From positions 1-64,000 of the forward strand of contig JAGAIY010000014.1 in assembly GCA_017626355.1 (NCBI GenBank): 64,000 bases of DNA. Direction: 5' to 3'. Origin of the DNA: Bacteroidales bacterium. Lineage in GTDB: Bacteria > Bacteroidota > Bacteroidia > Bacteroidales > UBA932. Positions 51,941 to 63,813 of this stretch are shown one piece after another (position 1 is the stretch's first letter; each line of letters starts with the position of its first letter). Below the pieces are notes generated by a model. That model did not search any database, had not been told where the DNA came from, and worked only from the letters and a program-made list of their open reading frames with translations. The translations under genes were made by a program, and so were the position numbers.

Positions 51941-51969
51941 AACAATGATTGAAACTAAAACCATTTGAT

Positions 51970-53988
51970 ATGAGTGCAGAACCAAGAAAGAAAAAGATGA
52001 TCTATGATGCCGATGAATGGCTTGTCCCTTATAAGGAGGTCATAGACAGGAGGCATGAGATGATTCTCGACGTCAAGAAGAGGATGTCTGTTGACGGTCT
52101 TCTCAGCAAGGGGATGAACAACCACATGTACTATGGCCTGCATAGGGACAGCAAGGGAGGCTGGATCTTCCGTGAGTGGGCCCCGAATGCGACCAAGATA
52201 TATATGATAGGCGAGTTCAACAACTGGAAGCGCAGTGATATATATGCCCTGAAGCCGATAGGCGGAGGTAACTGGGAGATAAATCTTCCGGCCATGTTCC
52301 TCGACCACGGCATGCTCTACAAGCTTTATATTGAATGGAAGGGCGGTGGAGCTGAAAGACTTCCTGCCTATGTCACCAGAACCGTTCAGGACCCGCATAC
52401 AAAGACCTTCTGTGCTCAGGTATGGGATCCCGCTCCTTATGAATGGAAGAACGGCAGGCCTGGAAAGCGTCCTCATCCCCTGATCTACGAATGCCATATA
52501 GGAATGGCGGCGGAGGAGGAGAAGGTCGGCACTTTCGAGGAGTTCCGTCTGAATGTGCTTCCTAAGGTGGCCGATCTTGGTTATGATACTCTGCAGATCA
52601 TGGCCCTCCAGGAGCATCCGTACTATGGTTCTTTCGGATATCAGGTGGCTAATTTCTATGCTCTGAGCTCCCGTTTCGGTACTCCGGAGGAGTTCAAGGC
52701 TCTTGTGGACGAGGCTCATGGCATGGGTATAGCCGTGGTGATGGACATAGTGCATTCTCACTCAGTGGACAATGAGGTCGAGGGTCTCGGTATGTTCGAC
52801 GGCAAGGAAGACCTGTATTTCTATACGGGCTGGCAGGGAAGGCATCCTGCCTGGGGTTCCCGCTGCTTCGATTACGGTAAGGATGAGACAAAGTATTTCC
52901 TTCTTTCGAACTGCAAGTACTGGATGGAGGAGTACCATATCGACGGTTTCCGCTTCGACGGTGTGACCAGCATGCTGTACTGGGATCATGGTCTGGAGAA
53001 GGCTTTTGTCGGTTACGACAACTATTTCAATGAAGGAGTGGACGAGAATGCTCTGACATACCTCGCTCTTGCCAACATCCTTATCCATGAAATGAACGAG
53101 GACGCCTTCACGATCGCCGAAGATGTCAGCGGAATGGCCGGCCTTGCCGCTCCGCTTGAAAAAGGCGGTATCGGTTTTGACTTCCGCATGAGCATGGGAG
53201 TGGCGGACAACTGGATCAAATGGATCAAGGAACTTTCGGACGACCAATGGAGCATGGGAGAAATGTGGTGGCAGCTCACCAACAAACGCGAGGATGAGAA
53301 GACCATCAGCTACGCCGAGTGCCATGATCAGGCCATGGTCGGAGACAAGACTATCGCTTTCCGTCTGATGGACAAGGAGATGTATTTCTCAATGAACAAG
53401 GATTCCCAGTCAGACGTGGTCGACAGAGGTATCTCCCTGCATAAGATGATACGTCTGGTGACTCTGGCTACATGCGGTAACGGTTACCTCAACTTCATGG
53501 GTAACGAGTTCGGCCATCCTGAATGGATCGACTTCCCTCGCGAAGGAAACGGATGGTCCTACAAGCATGCAAGGAGGCAGTGGTCTCTTGCTGAACCCGA
53601 TTATCTGAGGTACAGATATTTAAGAAATTTCGACAAGGCGATGGTAGGTCTGGTGCGTCAGGAAGCCGTTCTTGATGAGAAACCGGAACTTTTTGTGCAG
53701 GATGAAGAAAAAAAGATTCTGATTTTCAAAAGAAAAAATTGTATCTTTGCGCTCAATTTCAACCCCACTGCCTCATTTACCGACTATGGCTTCGCGGCAC
53801 CGGCGGGAAAATACGAGGTTGTGCTCAATACGGACGAAAACGAATTTGACGGCTTCTCCAGATTAAAGACTGGAGAGGTGCATTTTAGTGTACCGGTCAG
53901 GAGTGAGAATGGAAGCGGAAAATATGACGACAGTCTTTCGCTTTATCTGCCTAGCCGTTGTGCCGTAGTCCTTAAGAAGATAGATTAA
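51970..53988 (+). CDS. glgB: 1,4-alpha-glucan branching enzyme, GH13_8 (eukaryote-like)
   Basis: It creates alpha-1,6 branch points in glycogen. A CBM48 module (~65-150: FREWAPNATKIYMIGEFNNW) precedes the GH13 barrel. Conserved regions are VVMDIVHSHS, GFRFDGVTSM with nucleophile Asp330, IAEDVSG with acid/base Glu384, and YAECHDQAM. These match the eukaryote-type subfamily GH13_8. I chose the ATG at 51970 (672 aa) over an upstream TTG. Its start lies 29 nt after xseB, so it may share that transcript. It is the first of five glycogen genes. Confidence 0.95.
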   Translation: MSAEPRKKKMIYDADEWLVPYKEVIDRRHEMILDVKKRMSVDGLLSKGMNNHMYYGLHRDSKGGWIFREWAPNATKIYMIGEFNNWKRSDIYALKPIGGGNWEINLPAMFLDHGMLYKLYIEWKGGGAERLPAYVTRTVQDPHTKTFCAQVWDPAPYEWKNGRPGKRPHPLIYECHIGMAAEEEKVGTFEEFRLNVLPKVADLGYDTLQIMALQEHPYYGSFGYQVANFYALSSRFGTPEEFKALVDEAHGMGIAVVMDIVHSHSVDNEVEGLGMFDGKEDLYFYTGWQGRHPAWGSRCFDYGKDETKYFLLSNCKYWMEEYHIDGFRFDGVTSMLYWDHGLEKAFVGYDNYFNEGVDENALTYLALANILIHEMNEDAFTIAEDVSGMAGLAAPLEKGGIGFDFRMSMGVADNWIKWIKELSDDQWSMGEMWWQLTNKREDEKTISYAECHDQAMVGDKTIAFRLMDKEMYFSMNKDSQSDVVDRGISLHKMIRLVTLATCGNGYLNFMGNEFGHPEWIDFPREGNGWSYKHARRQWSLAEPDYLRYRYLRNFDKAMVGLVRQEAVLDEKPELFVQDEEKKILIFKRKNCIFALNFNPTASFTDYGFAAPAGKYEVVLNTDENEFDGFSRLKTGEVHFSVPVRSENGSGKYDDSLSLYLPSRCAVVLKKID

Positions 53989-54010: not shown

Positions 54011-55939
54011 ATGGCTTTTCTAAAATTCAACAAGTCCGAACTGGTCAACCTTGAGTACTCGCTCAAGCGCGAGATTCTTGAGGCCAACAGGACCGGTGCC
54101 TACTGCAACACGTCCATCGTGACCTGCAACACAAGGCGCTACCACGGATTGCTTGCTGTCCCTGTAGATGAGCTTGGCGGTGGAAAGTATATGCTTCTTT
54201 CCTCTCTCGACGAGAGCCTTGTCCTCAACGGTAAGCAGTTCAATCTTGGAATCCATTGCTATGGCGATACTTATGAGCCAAGAGGCCATAAGTACATCGT
54301 TGACTTCGATGCGAATCCGGTACCGGTAGTGACCTATAAGGTCGGTGGCATCATCTTCACGAAGACCATTACCATGGCTCCTGACAACGATCAGGTCCTC
54401 ATCAAGTATGAGCTTCTTGAAGCGCCTTCAAAACTTACCCTTATGCTCAAGCCATTCCTCGCATTCAGAAGCATCCACAGTCTGACAATGCAGAACTCGG
54501 ATGCCTACACTGCTTATGACGAGGTGGACGGCGGTGTCTCTTTCCGCCTTTACAATGGCTTCCCTGACCTCAACCTTCAACTTTCAGGCAAATCCTCTTT
54601 CAAGTCTCAGCCTTACTGGTACACAGGAGTGACCTATTCAGACGAGTATCGTCGCGGCTTCGACTGCAGGGAGGATCTCTTTGTTCCTGGAACATTCTCT
54701 CTCGAGATGAAGAAGGGTGACTCAGTAGTATTCTCGGCTTCGGTGAACGAAGTCAATCCTAAGGGACTCAAGAGAAAGTTCACAGATACCGTAAAGAAGC
54801 TCGGAACCATCGATTCTTATCATGACCTTCTCGCTCACAATGCTGAGCTCTTCAAGGTCGAGAAGGACGGCAAGGAGCGTATCAACGCCGGTTTCTCATG
54901 GCTCGAGACTGGTCTTCTTCGTGAGACCGTGGCTTCGCTCCCAGGTCTTACTCTTTATGCAAACGGCGACTGTGATGAATTTGAAAAGATCCTTGACACT
55001 CTTATCGCAGATGAGCAGGAGCGTCTTTTCAGACGTACGACCCAGTGCGAGGCTCCTCTCAGACTGACAGATACCATCCAGCAGTACATCCGCTTCAGCG
55101 GCAGGGAAAGACAGATCTGGAAGAAGTACGGAGAGACTCTCAAGGGAATCATAGAAAGTTATGCTCCAGGCCGCAGAAAGGAAGTTGCAATGCATCCGAA
55201 CGGCCTTCTCTGGACACAGATGGACGGAGTGGCTCTCTCATGGATGAACGCATATGTGCACGGCCGTCCTGTAACAGAGCGTGCCGGCTATCAGGTGGAG
55301 ACCAACGCGTTCTGGTACAATGCTCTCTGCTTCGCGATCGACATGGAGAACAAGTACGGTCCTAAGAACAGCGAGTTCTCGGCAAGATGGACTTCTGTCC
55401 GTGACCTTGTCAAGGAGAACTTCCAGCCTACATTCTGGAGAGCTGACTGGGGTTATCTTGCAGACTATGTGAACAACGGATGGCAGGATCAGGCTGTAAG
55501 GCCTAACCAGCTTTTCGCAATCAGCCTCGAGTATGTGGCTGTTGACGACGAAGTCATCTCATATGTTGTAAAGACAATCAACGACGAGCTCGTTACAAAG
55601 AGAGGTCTCAGGTCTCTTTCTCCTCGTAACCCTGCCTACAGGGGCGTGTATGAGGGATCTCAGATCGACCGTGACCTTGCATACCATCAGGGATGCGCCT
55701 TCCCTGACCTTCTCGCTCCATACATCGACGTATGCTTCAAGATGATGGGTGAGACATTCTACGGAAGGGCAAGATATCTCGTAGAGGGATTCTTTGATGA
55801 CATCAGCAAGCACGGTGTGGGTGCATTCTCCGAGCTTTATGACGGAGACCCTCCACATGAGCCGCACGGAGCCATTTCTTCGGCTATGAGTACTGCAGCT
55901 CTTCTGCAGATAGAATATATTATGAACCAGTATGAATAA
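54011..55939 (+). CDS. Glycogen debranching enzyme (amylo-alpha-1,6-glucosidase, GH133 type)
   Basis: It hydrolyses alpha-1,6 branch stubs during glycogen breakdown. The N-terminal bacterial GDE_N domain (~1-220) has the landmark GAYCNTSIVTCNTRRYHGLL. The C-terminal (alpha/alpha)6 domain from ~270 includes ANRTG-type conserved parts such as HPNGLLWTQMDG, AGYQVETNAFWYNAL and QAVRPNQLFAISL. At 642 aa it is typical of bacterial and archaeal GDE rather than of the larger eukaryotic form. Confidence 0.92.
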   Translation: MAFLKFNKSELVNLEYSLKREILEANRTGAYCNTSIVTCNTRRYHGLLAVPVDELGGGKYMLLSSLDESLVLNGKQFNLGIHCYGDTYEPRGHKYIVDFDANPVPVVTYKVGGIIFTKTITMAPDNDQVLIKYELLEAPSKLTLMLKPFLAFRSIHSLTMQNSDAYTAYDEVDGGVSFRLYNGFPDLNLQLSGKSSFKSQPYWYTGVTYSDEYRRGFDCREDLFVPGTFSLEMKKGDSVVFSASVNEVNPKGLKRKFTDTVKKLGTIDSYHDLLAHNAELFKVEKDGKERINAGFSWLETGLLRETVASLPGLTLYANGDCDEFEKILDTLIADEQERLFRRTTQCEAPLRLTDTIQQYIRFSGRERQIWKKYGETLKGIIESYAPGRRKEVAMHPNGLLWTQMDGVALSWMNAYVHGRPVTERAGYQVETNAFWYNALCFAIDMENKYGPKNSEFSARWTSVRDLVKENFQPTFWRADWGYLADYVNNGWQDQAVRPNQLFAISLEYVAVDDEVISYVVKTINDELVTKRGLRSLSPRNPAYRGVYEGSQIDRDLAYHQGCAFPDLLAPYIDVCFKMMGETFYGRARYLVEGFFDDISKHGVGAFSELYDGDPPHEPHGAISSAMSTAALLQIEYIMNQYE

Positions 55940-55951: not shown

Positions 55952-57247
55952 ATGAGAGTTCTGATGTTCGGATGGGAGTTCCCTCCTCATATTGCGGGAG
56001 GTCTCGGAACAGCCTGCTACGGTATGACCAAGGGTCTTGCCTACAATGATGTCGATGTTCTTTTTGTCATGCCTTCAGCCTCTGGAGACGAGGATGAGAG
56101 TGCGGTGAAGATCATCAATGCCAGCGACGTGGCTGTGGATACGGTAAGTGCTACCGTAGACGAGTTCCTCGGAAAGGTTCAGTTCGTGCATATCGGTACA
56201 AACATGATTCCTTATGTGGATCCTAACGATTTCAAGACAATGGTCGAAGAGGAGCGCAAGAGGCAGATCAAGGGTTTCCGTGTGCAGTACGGACAGAAAT
56301 ACAAGTTCTCCGGCAAGTACGGAGCAAACCTCATGGAAGAGGTTGCACGCTATGCAATGGTAGGTGCAACCATCGCCATGCAGTACAAGGATCAGTTCGA
56401 TGTGATCCATGCTCATGACTGGCTTACCTATCTTGCAGGTATCGCTGCCAAGCAGCTTACAGGCAAACCTCTCGTAGTGCATATGCATGCGACATCATAC
56501 GACCGTGCAAGCGATGATCAGGTCGATACACGTGTCGTTGACCTTGAGACAAAGGGTATGATGGCGGCAGACAAGGTAATGGCGGTGAGCGAACTCACAA
56601 GAAATATCTGTATCAATCGTTATGGAATCGACCCTGAAAAGGTTGTAGCTGTTCACAATGCCGTTGACTTCAGCGGTCGTGAGAAGCTCGAGGTCGAGAG
56701 GAATGTCAAGGAGAAGGTGGTTACCTTCCTTGGTCGTGTTACCTATCAGAAGGGCCCTGAGTACTTCATTGAGGCTGCAGCCAAGGTTCTCAAGAGATGC
56801 AACAACGTACGTTTCGTGATGGCCGGAAGCGGTGATATGCTCAACAGGTGTATCCGTCACGTCGCACGTCTCGGCATTTCCGACAAGTTCCATTTCACAG
56901 GCTTCCTCCGCGGCAAGGAGGTGCATAAGATGTTCGCTTTGTCGGATGTTTATGTAATGCCTTCTATCTCAGAGCCTTTCGGTATTTCACCGCTTGAGGC
57001 TATGCAGACAAATGTTCCTTCCATCATTTCGAAGCAGTCAGGTTGCGCCGAGATCCTCAGATATGCCCTCAAGGTTGACTTCTGGGATGTGGATGCCATG
57101 GCAGACCAGATCTACGGACTTCTCCAGTATCCTGCTATCGCGCAGCTTGCTGCACGTTGCGGATATGACGAGGTCAACAGCATCAAGTGGAATGACGTTG
57201 CCGCCAAGATAAAGGGTATATATCAGGAAGTTATTGACAAGAAATAA
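55952..57247 (+). CDS. GT4-family glycosyltransferase of the glycogen cluster
   Basis: It has a GT-B fold: N-terminal FGWEFPPHIAGGLGTACYGM, middle IHAHDWLTYLAGIAAKQLTGKP, and a C-terminal nucleotide-sugar domain with FLGRVTYQKGPEYFIEA and MPSISEPFGISPLEAMQ, which contains the E-x7-E pair. In Bacteroidales a GT4 gene of this type is regularly followed by a GH57 amylase, as here. It may build or elongate alpha-1,4-glucan, but donor and product are not known. At 431 aa it is full length. Confidence 0.9.
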   Translation: MRVLMFGWEFPPHIAGGLGTACYGMTKGLAYNDVDVLFVMPSASGDEDESAVKIINASDVAVDTVSATVDEFLGKVQFVHIGTNMIPYVDPNDFKTMVEEERKRQIKGFRVQYGQKYKFSGKYGANLMEEVARYAMVGATIAMQYKDQFDVIHAHDWLTYLAGIAAKQLTGKPLVVHMHATSYDRASDDQVDTRVVDLETKGMMAADKVMAVSELTRNICINRYGIDPEKVVAVHNAVDFSGREKLEVERNVKEKVVTFLGRVTYQKGPEYFIEAAAKVLKRCNNVRFVMAGSGDMLNRCIRHVARLGISDKFHFTGFLRGKEVHKMFALSDVYVMPSISEPFGISPLEAMQTNVPSIISKQSGCAEILRYALKVDFWDVDAMADQIYGLLQYPAIAQLAARCGYDEVNSIKWNDVAAKIKGIYQEVIDKK

Positions 57248-57264
57248 TAAAACATATAAACACT

Positions 57265-58605
57265 ATGAAAAAGAGTATTTGTCTGTATTTTCAGGTACAT
57301 CAGCCAAACAGATTGAGACTATACAGATTCTTTGACATCGGAAAGGATTCACATTACTATGATGACTTTGCGAACAGGACCATCCTCCGCAGGGTAGCTC
57401 AGAAGTGCTACCTTCCTATGAACGCACTTCTTCTCGAGCTTATCGAGGCCAACAAGGGTGCATTCAAGGTTGCATTCTCGATTTCAGGCTCGGTTCTCGA
57501 GCAGTTCGACAGATATGCTCCTGAGGTGATCGACAGCTTCCGCAAGCTTGCAGATACAGGTTGCGTAGAGTTCCTTTCAGAGACTTATTATCACTCTCTT
57601 GCATCGCTTGCATCTCCATCGGAGTTCAAGCATCAGGTCCTCAAGCACAAGGCTGCCATCGAGCACTATTTCGGTGTGACTCCTAAGGCTTTCAGAAACA
57701 CTGAGCTCATCTATTCGGACGCAATCGGTGAGATGGTATATGAAATGGGATTCAAGACCATGCTTACAGAAGGTGCAAGACACGTCCTCGGATGGAAGAG
57801 CCCTAACTTCGTATACAGCGGCGCACAGGCTCCAAGCCTCAAGCTCCTTCTCAAGAATGCTTCTCTCAGCGACGACATCGCTTTCCGTTTCTCAGACAGA
57901 AACTGGTCAGACTGGCCGCTTACAGGCGAGAAGTATCTCTCATGGATCAAGGCTGCTGCGCAGAATGACGAGATCGTGAACCTTTTCATGGATTACGAGA
58001 CCTTCGGTGAGCATCAGAAGGCTTCAAGCGGAATCTTCGATTTCATGAAGTTCTTCCCTGAGGTTGTGCTTGCAGACGGTGAGTTCGAGTTTGTTACCCC
58101 GACTCAGGCTACCAAGAAGCACAGACCGGTTGCAGAGCTTGATGTTCCGGATCCTATCTCTTGGGCAGACGAGGAGCGTGACGTGACTGCATGGCTTGGA
58201 AACGAGCTTCAGAACGACGCTTTCAACAAGCTCAACGAGCAGGTGGAGAAGCTTGGTCTTCTCAACGACGAGGCTCTCTGGTCTGACTTCGGTCATCTTC
58301 AGGAAAGCGACCACTTCTATTACATGTGTACAAAGTTCTTCTCAGACGGAGCTGTCCACAAATATTTCAACCCGTATGATACTCCATATGAGGCGTTTAT
58401 AAACTATATGAACGTTCTTAGTGATTTTATTTTGCGTGTTGATGATGCAATTTCCGTTTCAGATGTTAACTTTGCAGCCGCAAAAACAGCTAAGACTCCT
58501 GTAAAGAAGGCTCCGGCAAAGAAGGCAGCTCCTAAGAAGACTGTTGCCAAGAAGGCGGAACCTAAGGCTAAGAAGCCTGCAGCGAAGAAGACTGTAAAGA
58601 AATAA
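57265..58605 (+). CDS. GH57 alpha-amylase-like enzyme with a Lys/Ala/Pro-rich histone-H1-like tail
   Basis: GH57 enzymes act on alpha-1,4-glucans as amylases, 4-alpha-glucanotransferases or branching enzymes. The N-terminal FQVHQPNRLRLY, the nucleophile Glu147 in FRNTELIY, and the acid/base Asp243 in MDYETFGEHQ are seen. The catalytic part ends near residue 395. Residues 404-446 then form a tail with 17 Lys among 43, built from AAKK, PAKK and TVKK units, like histone H1 or bacterial AlgP/HctA-like tails. No signal peptide is present, so it works in the cytoplasm. The role of the tail is unknown. Confidence 0.92.
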   Translation: MKKSICLYFQVHQPNRLRLYRFFDIGKDSHYYDDFANRTILRRVAQKCYLPMNALLLELIEANKGAFKVAFSISGSVLEQFDRYAPEVIDSFRKLADTGCVEFLSETYYHSLASLASPSEFKHQVLKHKAAIEHYFGVTPKAFRNTELIYSDAIGEMVYEMGFKTMLTEGARHVLGWKSPNFVYSGAQAPSLKLLLKNASLSDDIAFRFSDRNWSDWPLTGEKYLSWIKAAAQNDEIVNLFMDYETFGEHQKASSGIFDFMKFFPEVVLADGEFEFVTPTQATKKHRPVAELDVPDPISWADEERDVTAWLGNELQNDAFNKLNEQVEKLGLLNDEALWSDFGHLQESDHFYYMCTKFFSDGAVHKYFNPYDTPYEAFINYMNVLSDFILRVDDAISVSDVNFAAAKTAKTPVKKAPAKKAAPKKTVAKKAEPKAKKPAAKKTVKK

Positions 58606-58642
58606 CCTCCGTATACATACGGTGTGGGTTTTACCCTTATAT

Positions 58643-58681
58643 ATCCCCGGACGGAACCTTGAAAAGGTTCTGGCCGGGGTA
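58643..58681. repeat. Long hairpin related to the CCCCGG...CCGGGG repeats
   Basis: CCCCGG (58645-58650) pairs with CCGGGG (58674-58679), and inside it GAACCTT (58654-58660) pairs with AAGGTTC (58664-58670). It is a longer relative of the palindromes at 12742 and 28506. It lies between the GH57 gene and the synthase-phosphorylase fusion and has no T-run. Confidence 0.7.
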
Positions 58682-58702
58682 AATAAATGATTAATTATTA
58701 AC

Positions 58703-61700
58703 ATGGCAAAAGAATTGATTAAACCGGATTACCTTTTCGAGGTCAGCTGGGAAGTCTGCAACAAGGTCGGAGGAATCTATACCGTGATTGCGACAAAGTC
58801 CCTCTACCTGAAGAGCGAATACAACAGGCATCATATAATGGTAGGTCCTGATGTATGGATGAATGAAGAGAGTAATCCCGATTTTATTGAAGATCCGGCA
58901 CTGTACAGGTCGTGGAGGATGCTGGCTGCATCTGAAGGACTCAGGGTTCGCGTGGGAAGATGGAACGTTCCGGGAAGGCCTACAGCCATCCTTGTTGACT
59001 TCAAGCAGTTCCTTACCTGTCAGAACGAGATCCTTACCGAATTCTGGAAGAAGTTCGGAGTGGATTCTCTCACAGGAAACTGGGACTACCGTGAGTCAGC
59101 TCTCTTCGGTTATGCGGCCGGAAGGGTGATCGAGAGTTTCTACAAGTATAATCTTGACTCATCCGACAAGGTCGTGGCACAGTTCCATGAGTGGATGACC
59201 GGTTCCGGCCTCCTCTATCTTAAGTCCATCAATATACCAGTCGCTACGGTATTCACTACTCATGCGACCGTGATAGGACGATGTATTGCCGGCAACAATC
59301 TTCCTCTCTATGACGGCATCCTCGGATACGATGCTGATGAGAAGGCAAGACATTTCAATGTTGTGGCAAGACATTCGCTTGAGAAGAAGGCCGCACAGAA
59401 CAGTGATATCTTCACTACTGTAAGTGATATCACGGCTCAGGAGTGCAGGCAGTTCCTCGGCAGACCAGTAGATGTAGTGACCCCTAACGGATTTGAGCCA
59501 AGCTTCACCCCTGCGACAGATGAGGAATATGAGGCTATGCGCGAATCCTCAAGAAAGAAACTCGTTGAGGTGGCTTCGGCCATGTGCGGCGAGGAAGTTC
59601 CGGAGAATGCGGTGCTCGTCGGCATCGGCGGACGTTACGAGTGGAAGAACAAGGGTATCGATGTATTCATCGATGCTCTCGACAAGCTTAACCACACGGA
59701 GTTCAAGGGTAAGTGCGTTCATGCGTTCATCATGATTCCTTCAGGACATAACGGCCCTGACAAGCAGCTCGTTTCGAAGCTTGCCGGTGCGCCTTCCAAC
59801 TATGTCACAAGAACTTCGCACTACCTGATGAATCCGGAGTACGACGCCATCACAAGACGTCTTGACGAGCTCAACTTCAACAATGCGATCGGCGACAAGG
59901 TGAAGGTGTATTTCATCCCTTCATATCTAAACGGCAACGACGGCATCTTCAACAAGTCATACTACGAGCTCCTCTGCGGTCTCGACCTGACTCTGTTCCC
60001 GTCATACTACGAGCCATGGGGCTATACTCCGCTCGAGAGTCTCGCCTTCAGGATCCCTTCACTTACCACAAGCCTCGCCGGCTTCGGTCTCTGGGTGCGT
60101 ACATATTACGGAAAGCCGCATCCGGGCATCACCATTCTCGACAGAAACGATTCGAACTACTTCGAGGTGGTGGATGGAGTGGCAGCGCGTGTTCAGGAGA
60201 TCGCTACCATCCGCAAGGATACAAGAAAGAAATATATGAAGAATGCCAAGGAGGTATCGGAAATCGCCCTCTGGCAGAACAATATCGTATATTATAAGGA
60301 AGCTTACTCTAAAGCTTTGGAGAAATTAATATCGGTCATGGGCTCGTTCCCATCGGCCAGGAACAATAAATCTATGGAATACAGAAAATTTGAAGTAAAT
60401 CAGCCAACATGGAACAGCGTGATTGTTTCACGCCATCTTCCTGATACACTCAAGGACCTTGAGACTCTTTCAAAGAATCTCTGGTGGTGCTGGAATGAAT
60501 CAGCAAAGAAACTTTTTGAATCAGTAGACCCACAGGCATGGGAGGCTTCCGGTCAGAACCCTATCGCCATGCTCGACAAGGTAAGCCTCAAGAGATATCA
60601 TGTTCTCGAGCAGGATACCAAGTTCCTTGCAGACCTCAAGGATGTAATGGACGAGTTCAATTCATATATGGCTCTCAAGGCAGAGCGTACTACTCCTTCA
60701 GTGGCATACTTCTGTATGGAGTACGGTCTTGACACTTCGCTCAAGATCTATTCAGGTGGTCTCGGTATCCTTGCCGGTGACTACATCAAGGAGACATCAG
60801 ACATGAACACCAACCTCGTGGCTGTAGGTCTTCTCTACCGTTTCGGTTACTTCAACCAGAAGCTCACCGCTCACGGAGAGCAGGTTGCAGAGGACGTTGC
60901 ACAGGACTTCAACAAGATCCCTGCAACTCCTGTACGTGACGAGAACGGAAACTGGATGACAATCAGCGTTGCTTTCCCTGGACGTAACCTCAATGCACGT
61001 CTCTGGAGAGTGGATGTAGGCCGTACAGAGCTCTATCTCCTCGATACAGACATTCCTGAGAACCTTCCTGAGGACAGGTCAATCACCTACAACCTATACG
61101 GCGGCGACTGGGAGAACCGTCTCAAGCAGGAGCTCCTTCTCGGTGTCGGCGGTATCCGCGCCCTCCGCAAGCTCGGTGTGAACCCTCAGGTTTACCACTG
61201 CAACGAGGGTCATGCTGCATTCATCGGTCTTGAAAGACTCCGTGAGCTCATCTCAGAGCAGAATCTCGAGTTCCAGGAGGCTCTCGAGGTTGTAAGGGCT
61301 TCATCACTCTTCACAACACATACTCCGGTACCTGCAGGTCACGACGCATTCGACGAAGGCCTTCTCCGCAAGTACATCGGCCACTATCCACAGCGTCTCA
61401 AGGTTGACTGGGAGACTATGATGGGTCTCGGCAAGAACAACGGTGCAGACGTGAACGAGAAGTTCTCTATGTCTATCCTCGCAGCAAACATCTCTCAGGA
61501 GGTGAACGGAGTTTCATGGCTCCACGGTGAGGTTAGCCGTGACATCCTCGGACACATGTGGCCAGGTTATCTTCCAGAGGAGCTTCACGTAAGCTACGTT
61601 ACCAACGGTGTACACTATCCTACATGGACAGCACCTGAGTGGAAGGAAGTTCACGCCAAGGTATTCGGTGAGGAATTCAAGACACACCACTATGACAAGT

Positions 61701-62941
61701 CATGCTTCGACGGTATCTACAAGGTATCTGACGAGGAGGTATGGAACATCCGTACTTCACTCCGCAGGAAGCTCATCGACGAGGTGAAGAGAAGACTTTC
61801 TGATCCTGCAGCTGCAAACCACTACTCTCCTAAGCAGGTGGTTACAATCAAGGAGACTCTCCGTGACGATGTCCTTACCATCGGTTTCGCACGTCGTTTC
61901 GCTACATACAAGAGAGCACACCTTCTTTTCCGTGACCTCGACCGTCTCGACCAGATCGTGAACGATCCTAAGCAGCCTGTACAGTTCCTCTTCGCAGGTA
62001 AGGCTCACCCGGCAGACAAGGCAGGTCAGGACCTCATCAAGATGATCGTGGACATTTCAAAGCAGGAGCGCTTCATCGGTAAGATCGTATTCGTTCCTAA
62101 CTATGATATCACAGTTGCCAAGTATCTCGTTCAGGGTGTTGACGTTTGGATGAACAACCCTACACGTCCTCTCGAGGCATCAGGTACATCAGGCGAGAAG
62201 GCTGCCATGAACGGTGTAATGCACTTCTCTGTACTCGACGGCTGGTGGGTAGAGGGCTACAAGCCAGGCGCAGGCTGGGCACTTCCTATGGAGCGTACTT
62301 ACGAGGACCAGAACTATCAGGACGAGCTCGATGCAGCAACAATCTACAACATCATCGAGAACGAGATCGCTCCTACATTCTACAACAAGAGCCTCTCGAC
62401 AGGCCGCTCTACAGACTGGATCGAGTACATCAAGAACTGTGTCGCTCAGGTAGCATGCAACTTCACAACCAACCGTATGCTCACTGATTACATCGACCAG
62501 TACTATGTGCCTCAGTCAAAGAGATATGACGCAGTAGTAGCTGAGGACTTCGCTCAGGCACGCGAGATCGCTGCATGGAAGAAGAGACTCCGCCGCGAGT
62601 GGAAGAACGTAGAGGTGGTATCGGTAGTGGCTCCTAACAGCGCTGTCAACAACGTAACTCTCGGAAGCGAGTTCAACGCTGAGGTGGTACTCAATATCGG
62701 TGACCTCAATGCTGAGGAGGTAGGAGTAGAGATCCTCTTCGCAACAGTTGACAACAAGGGCAGACTCCACATCCAGGAGAGCTATGAGTTCACTCCGGTA
62801 GAGTGCGCTGACGGTGTCGCTAAATATACAGCTTCAATCAACCCTGACAGATCAGGTCTCTATCAGGTGGCAGGAAGAATCTATGCAAAGAATTCTCTCC
62901 TCCCTCACAGACAGGACTTCGAGCTTGTAAGATGGTTGTAG
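58703..62941 (+). CDS. Fusion of GT3 glycogen synthase and GT35 glycogen (alpha-glucan) phosphorylase
   Basis: Residues 1-~555 are a eukaryote-like GT3 synthase: FEVSWEVCNKVGGIYTVIATK, FHEWMTGSGLLYL, FTTHATVIGR, and the E-x7-E pair Glu437/Glu445 in EPWGYTPLES. GT3 enzymes use UDP-glucose. From Met558 a complete phosphorylase begins (855 aa), with a DUF3417 N-terminal part (WNSVIVSRHLPDTLKDLETL), YFCMEYG, SGGLGILAGDY and the PLP lysine Lys1166 in EASGTSGEKAAMNG. Thus one chain holds enzymes that build and break the same bond. No stop or frameshift lies between them. An internal ATG at 60374 follows AATAAATCT, so a separate phosphorylase form is possible. ribF overlaps its end by 10 nt. Confidence 0.95.
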   Translation: MAKELIKPDYLFEVSWEVCNKVGGIYTVIATKSLYLKSEYNRHHIMVGPDVWMNEESNPDFIEDPALYRSWRMLAASEGLRVRVGRWNVPGRPTAILVDFKQFLTCQNEILTEFWKKFGVDSLTGNWDYRESALFGYAAGRVIESFYKYNLDSSDKVVAQFHEWMTGSGLLYLKSINIPVATVFTTHATVIGRCIAGNNLPLYDGILGYDADEKARHFNVVARHSLEKKAAQNSDIFTTVSDITAQECRQFLGRPVDVVTPNGFEPSFTPATDEEYEAMRESSRKKLVEVASAMCGEEVPENAVLVGIGGRYEWKNKGIDVFIDALDKLNHTEFKGKCVHAFIMIPSGHNGPDKQLVSKLAGAPSNYVTRTSHYLMNPEYDAITRRLDELNFNNAIGDKVKVYFIPSYLNGNDGIFNKSYYELLCGLDLTLFPSYYEPWGYTPLESLAFRIPSLTTSLAGFGLWVRTYYGKPHPGITILDRNDSNYFEVVDGVAARVQEIATIRKDTRKKYMKNAKEVSEIALWQNNIVYYKEAYSKALEKLISVMGSFPSARNNKSMEYRKFEVNQPTWNSVIVSRHLPDTLKDLETLSKNLWWCWNESAKKLFESVDPQAWEASGQNPIAMLDKVSLKRYHVLEQDTKFLADLKDVMDEFNSYMALKAERTTPSVAYFCMEYGLDTSLKIYSGGLGILAGDYIKETSDMNTNLVAVGLLYRFGYFNQKLTAHGEQVAEDVAQDFNKIPATPVRDENGNWMTISVAFPGRNLNARLWRVDVGRTELYLLDTDIPENLPEDRSITYNLYGGDWENRLKQELLLGVGGIRALRKLGVNPQVYHCNEGHAAFIGLERLRELISEQNLEFQEALEVVRASSLFTTHTPVPAGHDAFDEGLLRKYIGHYPQRLKVDWETMMGLGKNNGADVNEKFSMSILAANISQEVNGVSWLHGEVSRDILGHMWPGYLPEELHVSYVTNGVHYPTWTAPEWKEVHAKVFGEEFKTHHYDKSCFDGIYKVSDEEVWNIRTSLRRKLIDEVKRRLSDPAAANHYSPKQVVTIKETLRDDVLTIGFARRFATYKRAHLLFRDLDRLDQIVNDPKQPVQFLFAGKAHPADKAGQDLIKMIVDISKQERFIGKIVFVPNYDITVAKYLVQGVDVWMNNPTRPLEASGTSGEKAAMNGVMHFSVLDGWWVEGYKPGAGWALPMERTYEDQNYQDELDAATIYNIIENEIAPTFYNKSLSTGRSTDWIEYIKNCVAQVACNFTTNRMLTDYIDQYYVPQSKRYDAVVAEDFAQAREIAAWKKRLRREWKNVEVVSVVAPNSAVNNVTLGSEFNAEVVLNIGDLNAEEVGVEILFATVDNKGRLHIQESYEFTPVECADGVAKYTASINPDRSGLYQVAGRIYAKNSLLPHRQDFELVRWL

Positions 62942-63813
62942 CAACCGGCTTTTTTGACGGTGTCCATCTGGGGCACCGTCAGGTTATAAGGCAGCTCGTA
63001 GAAGCTGCAGCAGTACGCGGGGTTGAGAGCACAGTCCTTACTTTCTGGCCTCACCCCCGTAATGTGCTGCAAAAGGAAGCCCGCGATCTGAGGCTTCTGA
63101 CGACTCTTCAGCAGAAGAAGGAAATCCTGCTGGAACTGGGAGTCGACCATGTTGAAGTGCTTCCTTTCACGAAGGACTTCAGTACGATGACCGTCGAGGA
63201 GTATCTTCGCGAGACGGTAATCGGCAAATATGGCGGAACAGCCATCCTGCTCGGTTACGACAACAGGATCGGATGTGATGCAAAGGATGCGGACCATGTG
63301 GCCCGTATAGCGGAATCAATGGGACTTGAGGTCATTCGCGCGGAAATGGTTCTGTCCGGCTCCGGCGTGGCGGTAAGTTCCACCAAGATCCGCGGAAGGC
63401 TTGCGGAGGGAGATGTCGCAGGAGCGGCCGATATGCTCGGATACAGATATTCGCTGCTGGGGGTCGTAGTCGCAGGAAACAGACTGGGACGTACTATAGG
63501 CTTTCCGACAGCAAACATGCAGCTGTATGAGCCTTTGAAGCTCATACCGGCCAACGGTGTGTATTTCGTCAAGGTGAAGACACTCGGGCGTGAATTGTAC
63601 GGGATGTGCAACATCGGCTGCAGACCTACGGTCAGTGAAGGCAATGCCAGAACCATCGAGACCAATATCTTCGGCTTTGACGAGGATATATACGGACTCG
63701 ATATGGAGATTTCCTTTGTGAAGAAGATTCGTGATGAGATACGTTTCGACTCGCTCGAGGCTCTTCAGGCACAGCTGGCCCTTGACCGTGATACCTGTCT
63801 GGGACTTATTTAA
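62932..63813 (+). CDS. ribF: Bifunctional riboflavin kinase/FAD synthetase
   Basis: It converts riboflavin to FMN and then FAD. The FAD synthetase domain begins at once with ATGFFDGVHLGH (residues ~4-15); TKIRGRLAEGDV and the kinase segment GNRLGRTIGFPTANM (~183-197) follow. The N-terminus is about 15 residues shorter than many RibF proteins, but no upstream start exists without deeper overlap with the phosphorylase. At 293 aa it is otherwise complete. Confidence 0.95.
   Translation: MVVATGFFDGVHLGHRQVIRQLVEAAAVRGVESTVLTFWPHPRNVLQKEARDLRLLTTLQQKKEILLELGVDHVEVLPFTKDFSTMTVEEYLRETVIGKYGGTAILLGYDNRIGCDAKDADHVARIAESMGLEVIRAEMVLSGSGVAVSSTKIRGRLAEGDVAGAADMLGYRYSLLGVVVAGNRLGRTIGFPTANMQLYEPLKLIPANGVYFVKVKTLGRELYGMCNIGCRPTVSEGNARTIETNIFGFDEDIYGLDMEISFVKKIRDEIRFDSLEALQAQLALDRDTCLGLI

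What the first reader, a model, noticed from the sequence alone, without database searches (positions are those of the whole stretch)
58703..62941. Glycogen synthase and glycogen phosphorylase fused in one polypeptide
A full GT3 synthase (catalytic Glu437/Glu445) and a full GT35 phosphorylase (PLP Lys1166) form one 1412-residue chain. These activities oppose each other and are normally regulated in opposite directions; as far as I know they are separate genes in Bacteroides. A fusion would force 1:1 amounts and may create a switchable or channelled enzyme, or serve glycogen remodelling. The junction (AATAAATCT then ATG at 60374) looks like a former intergene read through in frame, which suggests a recent join. 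I recall long entries called 'alpha-glucan phosphorylase' in some Bacteroidales, so the fusion may exist in databases without having been studied.
Basis: partly seen in the sequence, partly recalled or inferred. Interest (0 to 1): 0.7.

Follow-up and report, generated by a model that had tools for sequence, protein, structure and literature searches.

The report
Glycogen maker and breaker in one
One gene of a likely gut bacterium encodes a glycogen-building enzyme and a glycogen-breaking enzyme in a single chain; the same joined gene recurs across the order Bacteroidales, was likely cut apart later in the Bacteroides line, and in this genus is predicted to make extra free breaking enzyme from a second start inside the gene.

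Summary
ORF 58703-62941 (1,412 aa) joins a GT3 glycogen synthase to a GT35 alpha-glucan phosphorylase. E445 and K1166 are kept in 185 of 185 distinct fused genes, E437 in 183. The fusion is neither recent nor an artefact: 115 of 126 family rows and 121 of 141 order rows that I counted have frames of 1,350 aa or more; 77 of 80 named loci are fused. The separate genes of Bacteroides form one clade inside the fused sequences, so the split looks derived (favoured, not proven: AU p 0.027 concatenated; 0.16 and 0.47 for single halves).

The linker is predicted disordered, so two tethered, independent enzymes are more likely than a channel. The synthase half is the dispensable one: five relatives lack it, and one genus has E437Q (11 of 11). 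In the window's genus the junction ATG (60374) carries start-codon signatures: a third-position GC dip equal to that of the true start, weak RNA structure, A at -6 and -12. Genes without that Met lack the dip and the weak structure as a group. Internal initiation of free phosphorylase is predicted, untested. Seven searches of one open-licence library showed no paper on the fusion.

The parts
58703..62941 (+). fused GT3-GT35 ORF, 1,412 aa
58703..60349 (+). GT3 glycogen synthase half (residues 1-549)
   Evidence: PF05693; alignment A1
60011..60013 (+). E437, first Glu of the E-X7-E pair
   Evidence: 183 of 185 fused genes
60035..60037 (+). E445, second Glu of the E-X7-E pair
   Evidence: 185 of 185
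60356..60427 (+). linker, residues 552-575, predicted disordered
   Evidence: pLDDT under 50; W524-to-N592 is 66-74 residues in 113 fused proteins
60359..60403 (+). AT-rich patch around the junction ATG, start-region-like
60374..60376 (+). in-frame ATG (M558), predicted internal start of an 855-aa phosphorylase
   Evidence: Met in 117 of 121 near relatives; same distance to W570 as the start Met of several split GT35s
60437..62938 (+). GT35 phosphorylase half with DUF3417 (residues 579-1412)
   Evidence: PF11897, PF00343, TIGR02094
62198..62200 (+). K1166, PLP lysine position
   Evidence: 185 of 185
51949..53988 (+). GH13 branching-enzyme-like ORF upstream in the same cluster (true start not determined)
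   Evidence: TIGR01515 217 bits, below its cut-off 464; ORF
54011..55939 (+). glycogen debranching enzyme (GDE_N, GDE_C)
55952..57247 (+). GT4-type glycosyltransferase
57265..58605 (+). GH57 enzyme
62932..63813 (+). ribF, overlaps the end of the fused ORF by 10 nt

Best explanation
This gene encodes a single chain holding a GT3 glycogen synthase and a GT35 glycogen phosphorylase, an architecture found across the order Bacteroidales, and it likely works as two independent enzymes tethered on glycogen by a predicted flexible linker, with extra free phosphorylase predicted to come from an internal start codon (ATG 60374) in this genus. Shown: the fusion, its order-wide spread, conservation of the catalytic residues, the conserved junction length, the gene cluster (branching-enzyme-like, debranching enzyme, GT4, GH57, fused gene, ribF), and start-like nucleotide signatures at the junction ATG. 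Inferred: the synthase half adds glucose from a nucleotide sugar, probably UDP-glucose as is usual for GT3; the phosphorylase half releases glucose 1-phosphate; net direction is set by substrate and phosphate levels rather than by the join; the join co-delivers both activities to one particle and permits continuous glycogen turnover. Predicted and untested: internal initiation lets the cell exceed the 1:1 ratio in favour of breakdown.
For: Domains and residues. Spread. No fusion in 110 genomes outside the order that have DUF3417 (printed frames 550-910 aa), and no further fusion in the phylum GT3 sample. Split clade nested. Linker disordered at 552-575, pTM 0.75 on a 1,200-residue cut. Synthase half separable: five relatives have the cluster without GT3 (in G027 the contig ends inside GT35), and two of them (L091, L092) keep linker residues at the start of the lone GT35. 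Sole recognised synthase: no GT5 glgA or glgC over cut-off in 15 of 15 family genomes searched. Internal start: third-position GC z -2.72 (27 genes with the Met) against -0.57 (53 without); after thinning to 17 v 34, 9 v 28 and 5 v 23 clusters p is 3e-5, 0.003 and 0.016; the dip at the junction (-0.22) equals that at the true start (-0.21) of the same genes and is -0.02 in genes without the Met; the site is less structured than about 90% of sampled own-gene sites, 61% in genes without the Met; A at -6 in 0.89 v 0.29 and at -12 in 0.59 v 0.24 against 793 other in-frame Mets of the same genes, positions reported as positive determinants in Flavobacterium (PMC6847099, passages read). In the window itself z is -2.27 and the lowest 35-codon GC3 windows begin at codons 555-556 and 574. 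No internal promoter motif (0 of 27).
Against: No assay of either half. Synonymous sites at the junction are not unusually conserved (0.41, 6th percentile). The Met is confined mostly to one clade (11 of 74 family genes, 3 of 41 order genes, 23 of 70 contig loci), so the signature rests largely on one origin. Of all 37 Met genes 16 are not below z -2, and Met carriers outside the clade (L102, L118, L120, L188, L189) show no dip. Ten of the 53 genes without the Met have z below -2. A at -6 partly follows from a conserved Lys codon; the window has A at -6 and -12 but T at -3 and G at -13, and its own folding z is only +0.68. A genus with Gln for E437 shows that the synthase need not be active everywhere. 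Fission order is not settled by two of the single-half AU tests.
Confidence: 0.55

Rival explanations
1. Obligate bifunctional enzyme: only the full chain is made, at 1:1, and the halves are switched or channelled against each other.
For: Both active sites are kept in nearly all fused genes; junction length is kept within 66-74 residues.
Against: Linker predicted disordered; the synthase half was lost or altered in relatives while the phosphorylase stayed; start-like signature at the junction in this genus.
Confidence: 0.25
2. The AT-rich junction patch only reflects relaxed codon selection in a disordered linker; no internal start is used.
For: No synonymous conservation; 10 of 53 genes without the Met also dip.
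Against: As a group, genes without the Met have a variable linker too but no dip in the first ten codons (-0.02 v -0.22); the patch spans the ATG and extends into phosphorylase codons.
Confidence: 0.4
3. The synthase half serves mainly to hold the phosphorylase on glycogen, and chain growth is done by the GT4 enzyme or by the phosphorylase run in reverse.
For: E437Q in 11 of 11 genomes of one genus; four relatives without GT3 and without GT5/glgC over cut-off keep a branching-enzyme-like match.
Against: E437 is kept in 183 and E445 in 185 of 185 fused genes; GT3 matches eukaryotic glycogen synthases at E about 1e-75.
Confidence: 0.12
4. Recent read-through join of two neighbouring genes, or an assembly error that removed a stop.
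Against: Same fusion in 120 of 120 listed homologues and across the order, including records titled as strains.
Confidence: 0.02

Closest known systems
Eukaryotic/GT3 glycogen synthase (human GYS1, yeast Gsy2p)
   Same: PF05693, E-X7-E pair, fold match by Foldseek, 26-28% identity
   Different: shorter (about 549 aa; profile positions 344-413 are not matched); fused to a phosphorylase; regulation not tested
Glycogen phosphorylase of Segatella copri (PDB 9l6i, 20yr)
   Same: same kind of GT35; 54% identity in the structural alignment, best structural match, E 3e-289 by sequence
   Different: the solved chain is about 850 aa and stands alone; the window's is the C-terminal half of a fusion
Bacteroides glycogen/starch synthase + separate phosphorylase gene pair
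   Same: orthologous halves, adjacent and in the same order (12 of 12 split loci fetched)
   Different: two genes; nested inside the fused sequences in the trees, so probably produced by fission
TreS-Mak/Pep2 and GlgB-MalQ fusions of alpha-glucan metabolism (PMC11046441, passages read)
   Same: fusion of two enzymes of alpha-glucan metabolism
   Different: those join other alpha-glucan enzymes; here synthesis and breakdown of the same kind of bond are joined

Membership tests
GT3 glycogen synthase | PF05693 over curated cut-off | tested here: met
   312.7 bits v 27
GT3 glycogen synthase | E-X7-E catalytic pair (role recalled) | tested here: met
   E437/E445; 183 and 185 of 185
GT3 glycogen synthase | UDP-glucose-dependent activity | not testable with these tools
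   no assay
GT35 alpha-glucan phosphorylase, TIGR02094 type | TIGR02094 and PF11897 over cut-off | tested here: met
   824 v 191.7 bits; 115.5 v 25
GT35 alpha-glucan phosphorylase, TIGR02094 type | PLP lysine (role recalled) | tested here: met
   K1166, 185 of 185
GT35 alpha-glucan phosphorylase, TIGR02094 type | phosphorolysis of alpha-1,4-glucan | not testable with these tools
   no assay
Bacteroidales GT3-GT35 fusion | both halves in one frame with conserved junction length | tested here: met
   69 residues W524-N592; range 66-74 in 113
Gene with an internal in-frame translation start | start-like composition, structure and upstream A at the internal ATG | tested here: met
   (as a group, largely one clade; weaker in the window alone)
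Gene with an internal in-frame translation start | constraint on synonymous sites at the start region | tested here: not met
   synonymous identity 0.41, 6th percentile
Gene with an internal in-frame translation start | short protein detected | not testable with these tools
   no expression data; therefore not filed as a member, only predicted

The most novel reading that the evidence does not exclude
An order-wide single-chain glycogen synthase-phosphorylase is the ancestral glycogen enzyme of Bacteroidales; one gene makes two products in Cryptobacteroides through an internal start, Bacteroides later cut it in two, one genus turned its synthase half into a pseudo-enzyme, and the tethered opposing pair drives constant glycogen turnover in these gut bacteria.
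Probability: 0.3. Interest if true: 0.75.

Novelty: new variant of a known kind. Interest (0 to 1): 0.55.

Why it matters
Synthase and phosphorylase are textbook examples of opposed, oppositely regulated enzymes. Here many gut and sediment bacteria keep them on one polypeptide, under database names that, where given, mention only the phosphorylase. The case offers a natural series (fused, split, synthase lost, synthase E-to-Q, candidate internal start) for testing why opposing enzymes are tethered and how bacteria set storage against mobilisation. It bears on glycogen futile cycling, which a rumen review lists for Fibrobacter, with energy spilling of undetermined mechanism also listed for Prevotella bryantii (PMC4432691, passages read).

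Tried and rejected
Recent join and assembly artefact: rejected on spread. Internal promoter at the junction: 0 of 27 Met genes carry TAnnTTTG in -140..-5 (motif recalled). Synonymous conservation as support for the internal start: not found. AU test that all fused rows form one clade (that is, split basal): not rejected by GT3 alone (p 0.47) nor by GT35 without L239 (p 0.16); rejected with L239 (p 0.03; this also forces L239 out) and by the concatenated 50-row set (p 0.027, a subset of 33 fused, 9 split and 8 outgroup rows). First impression that Met558 marks the whole family: wrong, 11 of 74 family genes. G576's 1,891-aa frame: an upstream open frame overlapping GH57, not a third domain. PF01704 search for a UDP-glucose pyrophosphorylase: uninformative, no control rang; TIGR01099 gave only sub-cut-off matches, so the donor-making enzyme was not identified.

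Papers: looked for the fusion or the glycogen enzymes of this group, for the Segatella enzyme, 71 and 72 for start sites. I saw the listings and passages of four papers (PMC11046441 with its section 28, PMC10395257, PMC4432691, PMC6847099); other listed papers were not opened. PMC168755 (P. bryantii glycogen) is not held and is known to me only through PMC4432691.

Rows dropped or left alone: 7 of 120 fused loci shorter than 1,350 aa; 8 identical proteins of 193; L344 (wrong strand frame picked by the script); genes with third-position GC of 0.55 or less in the 27 v 53 comparison (all 37 v 148 are also: z -2.16 v -0.49). Of the 20 counted order rows with frames under 1,350 aa, 8 were fetched and are split pairs; the other 12 were not examined. 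Of 11 such family rows, G001 and G033 were fetched as frame breaks, and G055 was read; the rest were not examined. G142 (DUF3417 at a contig start, no GT3 match) was not fetched.
Full report
What is there. The frame 58703-62941 is open for 1,412 codons. Its first 549 residues hold the match to Glycogen_syn PF05693; residues 579-680 match DUF3417 PF11897 and 667-1270 match TIGR02094, the alpha-glucan family phosphorylases. By sequence the best solved relatives are a standalone alpha-glucan family phosphorylase (E 3e-289) and human and yeast glycogen synthases (E about 1e-75 and 1e-74); by fold, Segatella copri glycogen phosphorylase and GYS1/Gsy2p.

Surroundings. The gene stands near the end of a same-strand cluster: a branching-enzyme-like GH13 (51949-53988), debranching enzyme, GT4, GH57, then the fusion, with ribF overlapping its end by 10 nt. 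Debranching-GT4-GH57 lies directly upstream of the fusion in 58 of 80 loci from a species-level genome collection, and ribF within 250 nt of its end in 36 of 80; several of the others end at contig borders. In 15 family genomes searched, no GT5 glgA and no glgC exceeds its cut-off, so the GT3 half is the only recognised glycogen synthase. A GT5-like fragment in frames of about 270-325 aa and the GT4 gene give weaker hits; the fragment agrees with a remark in PMC11046441 (section 28 read).

How widespread. In 149 genomes of the window's family, 131 have GT3 and 136 have DUF3417; 12 have neither. Of 126 GT3 first-piece rows that I counted, 115 lie in frames of 1,350 aa or more. In 295 genomes of the order, 259 have GT3; of 141 printed rows of this type, 121 are in such frames (the list is cut). 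In 395 genomes of the phylum GT3 exceeds its cut-off in 18 and only the window is fused; the four other order members there have separate GT3 frames of 556-602 aa. In a 198-genome phylum sample, 110 genomes outside the order have DUF3417 and no printed frame exceeds 910 aa. Of 80 loci in named records 77 are fused; L152 and L205 are cut by contig ends and L194 has a frame break. Records titled as strains include Dysgonomonas sp. HGC4, Labilibacter sediminis, Marinifilum caeruleilacunae, Plebeiobacterium sediminum and Capnocytophaga canis. These 80 were picked by similarity to a GT3 alignment led by the window, so they favour the fused type. Where databases name close relatives they say 'alpha-glucan family phosphorylase', for example from Candidatus Cryptobacteroides, which is also the basis for placing the unnamed window genome.

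Fusion or fission first. In 12 of 12 split genomes fetched, GT3 lies directly upstream of GT35 on the same strand; one is Bacteroides ihuae. Outgroup-rooted trees of GT35 (86 rows), GT3 (77 rows) and both halves concatenated (50 rows) put the split rows in one clade (SH-aLRT 100) inside the fused rows. The AU test rejects the alternative in the concatenated set (p 0.027) and in the GT35 set that includes L239 (p 0.03), not in GT3 (0.47) or GT35 without L239 (0.16). I read this as: fused ancestor, one later fission, likely but not proven.

The synthase half is the expendable one. Five family genomes keep debranching-GT4-GH57-GT35 with GT3 missing (in G027 the contig ends inside GT35); the lone GT35 of two of them (L091, L092) still begins with linker-like residues of the fusion, which points to descent by deletion. 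In G134 the first ATG of the lone GT35 frame is the Met (MTTNSPSW) that two fused genomes of the same genus carry inside the linker. In one genus 11 of 11 sequences have Gln for E437 while K1166 stays. In the family sample only G090 has a (partial) GT3 match without DUF3417, not followed up. That four relatives without GT3 keep a branching-enzyme-like match hints that GT4 or reverse phosphorolysis can build glucan; this is inference.

The junction. From W524 to N592 the chain is 66-74 residues in 113 fused proteins. AlphaFold gives pLDDT under 50 for 552-575 between two mostly well-modelled halves; some phosphorylase stretches (937-968, 1154-1161, 1177-1200) are also low, perhaps because the model had to be cut at residue 1200. 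A flexible tether is the natural reading; a rigid channel is not indicated. In the window's genus and close kin the position 12 residues before invariant W570 is Met (117 of 121 near relatives; 37 of 185 overall), the distance at which several split GT35s begin. Around that ATG the genes look like a gene start: the third-position GC dip in the first ten codons (-0.22) equals that at the true start of the same genes (-0.21), while genes without the Met dip at their true start (-0.23) but not at the junction (-0.02); the site is less structured than about 90% of sampled own-gene sites against 61%; codon-permutation z is -2.72 against -0.57, surviving thinning to clusters; in 19 of 27 genes it has the lowest GC3 among own internal Mets more than 40 codons away; A at -6 and -12 is enriched, as reported for Flavobacterium starts (PMC6847099, passages). 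Against: no extra synonymous conservation; essentially one clade; five Met carriers outside it without a dip; ten genes without the Met that dip; and in the window itself T at -3, G at -13 and a folding z of only +0.68. I put the internal start at about even odds.

Mechanism. Most likely both halves work on the same glycogen particle as independent catalysts. Tethering co-delivers them; net flux follows substrate, phosphate and effectors; internal initiation would raise phosphorylase over synthase in this genus. None of this is assayed.

Known or new. The parts are known families. The fused architecture sits in databases in large numbers (6,472 proteins at E <= 0.001, of which the 120 listed are fused). 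Seven paper searches in one library of openly licensed papers listed no study of it by title or abstract start, and the passages that I opened do not mention it. The Chem Rev review of alpha-glucan enzymes (PMC11046441, section 28 and passages read) treats Bacteroidetes GT3 without mentioning the fusion in what I read.

Noticed in passing
window 58637-58686: Strong RNA stem-loop between GH57 and the fused gene (z -3.3 for 58600-58705); the gap is much shorter in several relatives, so it is not generally conserved.
   Followed up: partly
L313, L324, L326-L334: E437Q with a changed neighbourhood (YYQPWGYN) in 11 of 11 genomes of one genus: a possible pseudo-synthase kept in the fusion.
   Followed up: partly
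L090-L094: Phosphorylase alone with the synthase half missing; the four of these five genomes that were searched keep a branching-enzyme-like match without GT5/glgC over cut-off.
   Followed up: partly
L239 (G326): Lone 900-aa GT35 from another order of the class, near the base of the Bacteroidales GT35 tree; its genome is not among the GT3 hits.
   Followed up: no
L048-L056: Nine order genomes carry a full-length eukaryote-like GT3 (frames 612-797 aa); six of them show further GT3 matches, three only this one.
   Followed up: no
L204: Capnocytophaga canis (Flavobacteriaceae) carries the fusion and groups with Butyricimonas: likely horizontal transfer.
   Followed up: partly
L096, L097, L194: Frame breaks inside the fused gene in three assemblies; error or decay not distinguished.
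   Followed up: no
window 55952-57247: GT4 gene with sub-cut-off similarity to glgA_Coryne (119 v 302 bits), a candidate second glucan synthase.
   Followed up: no
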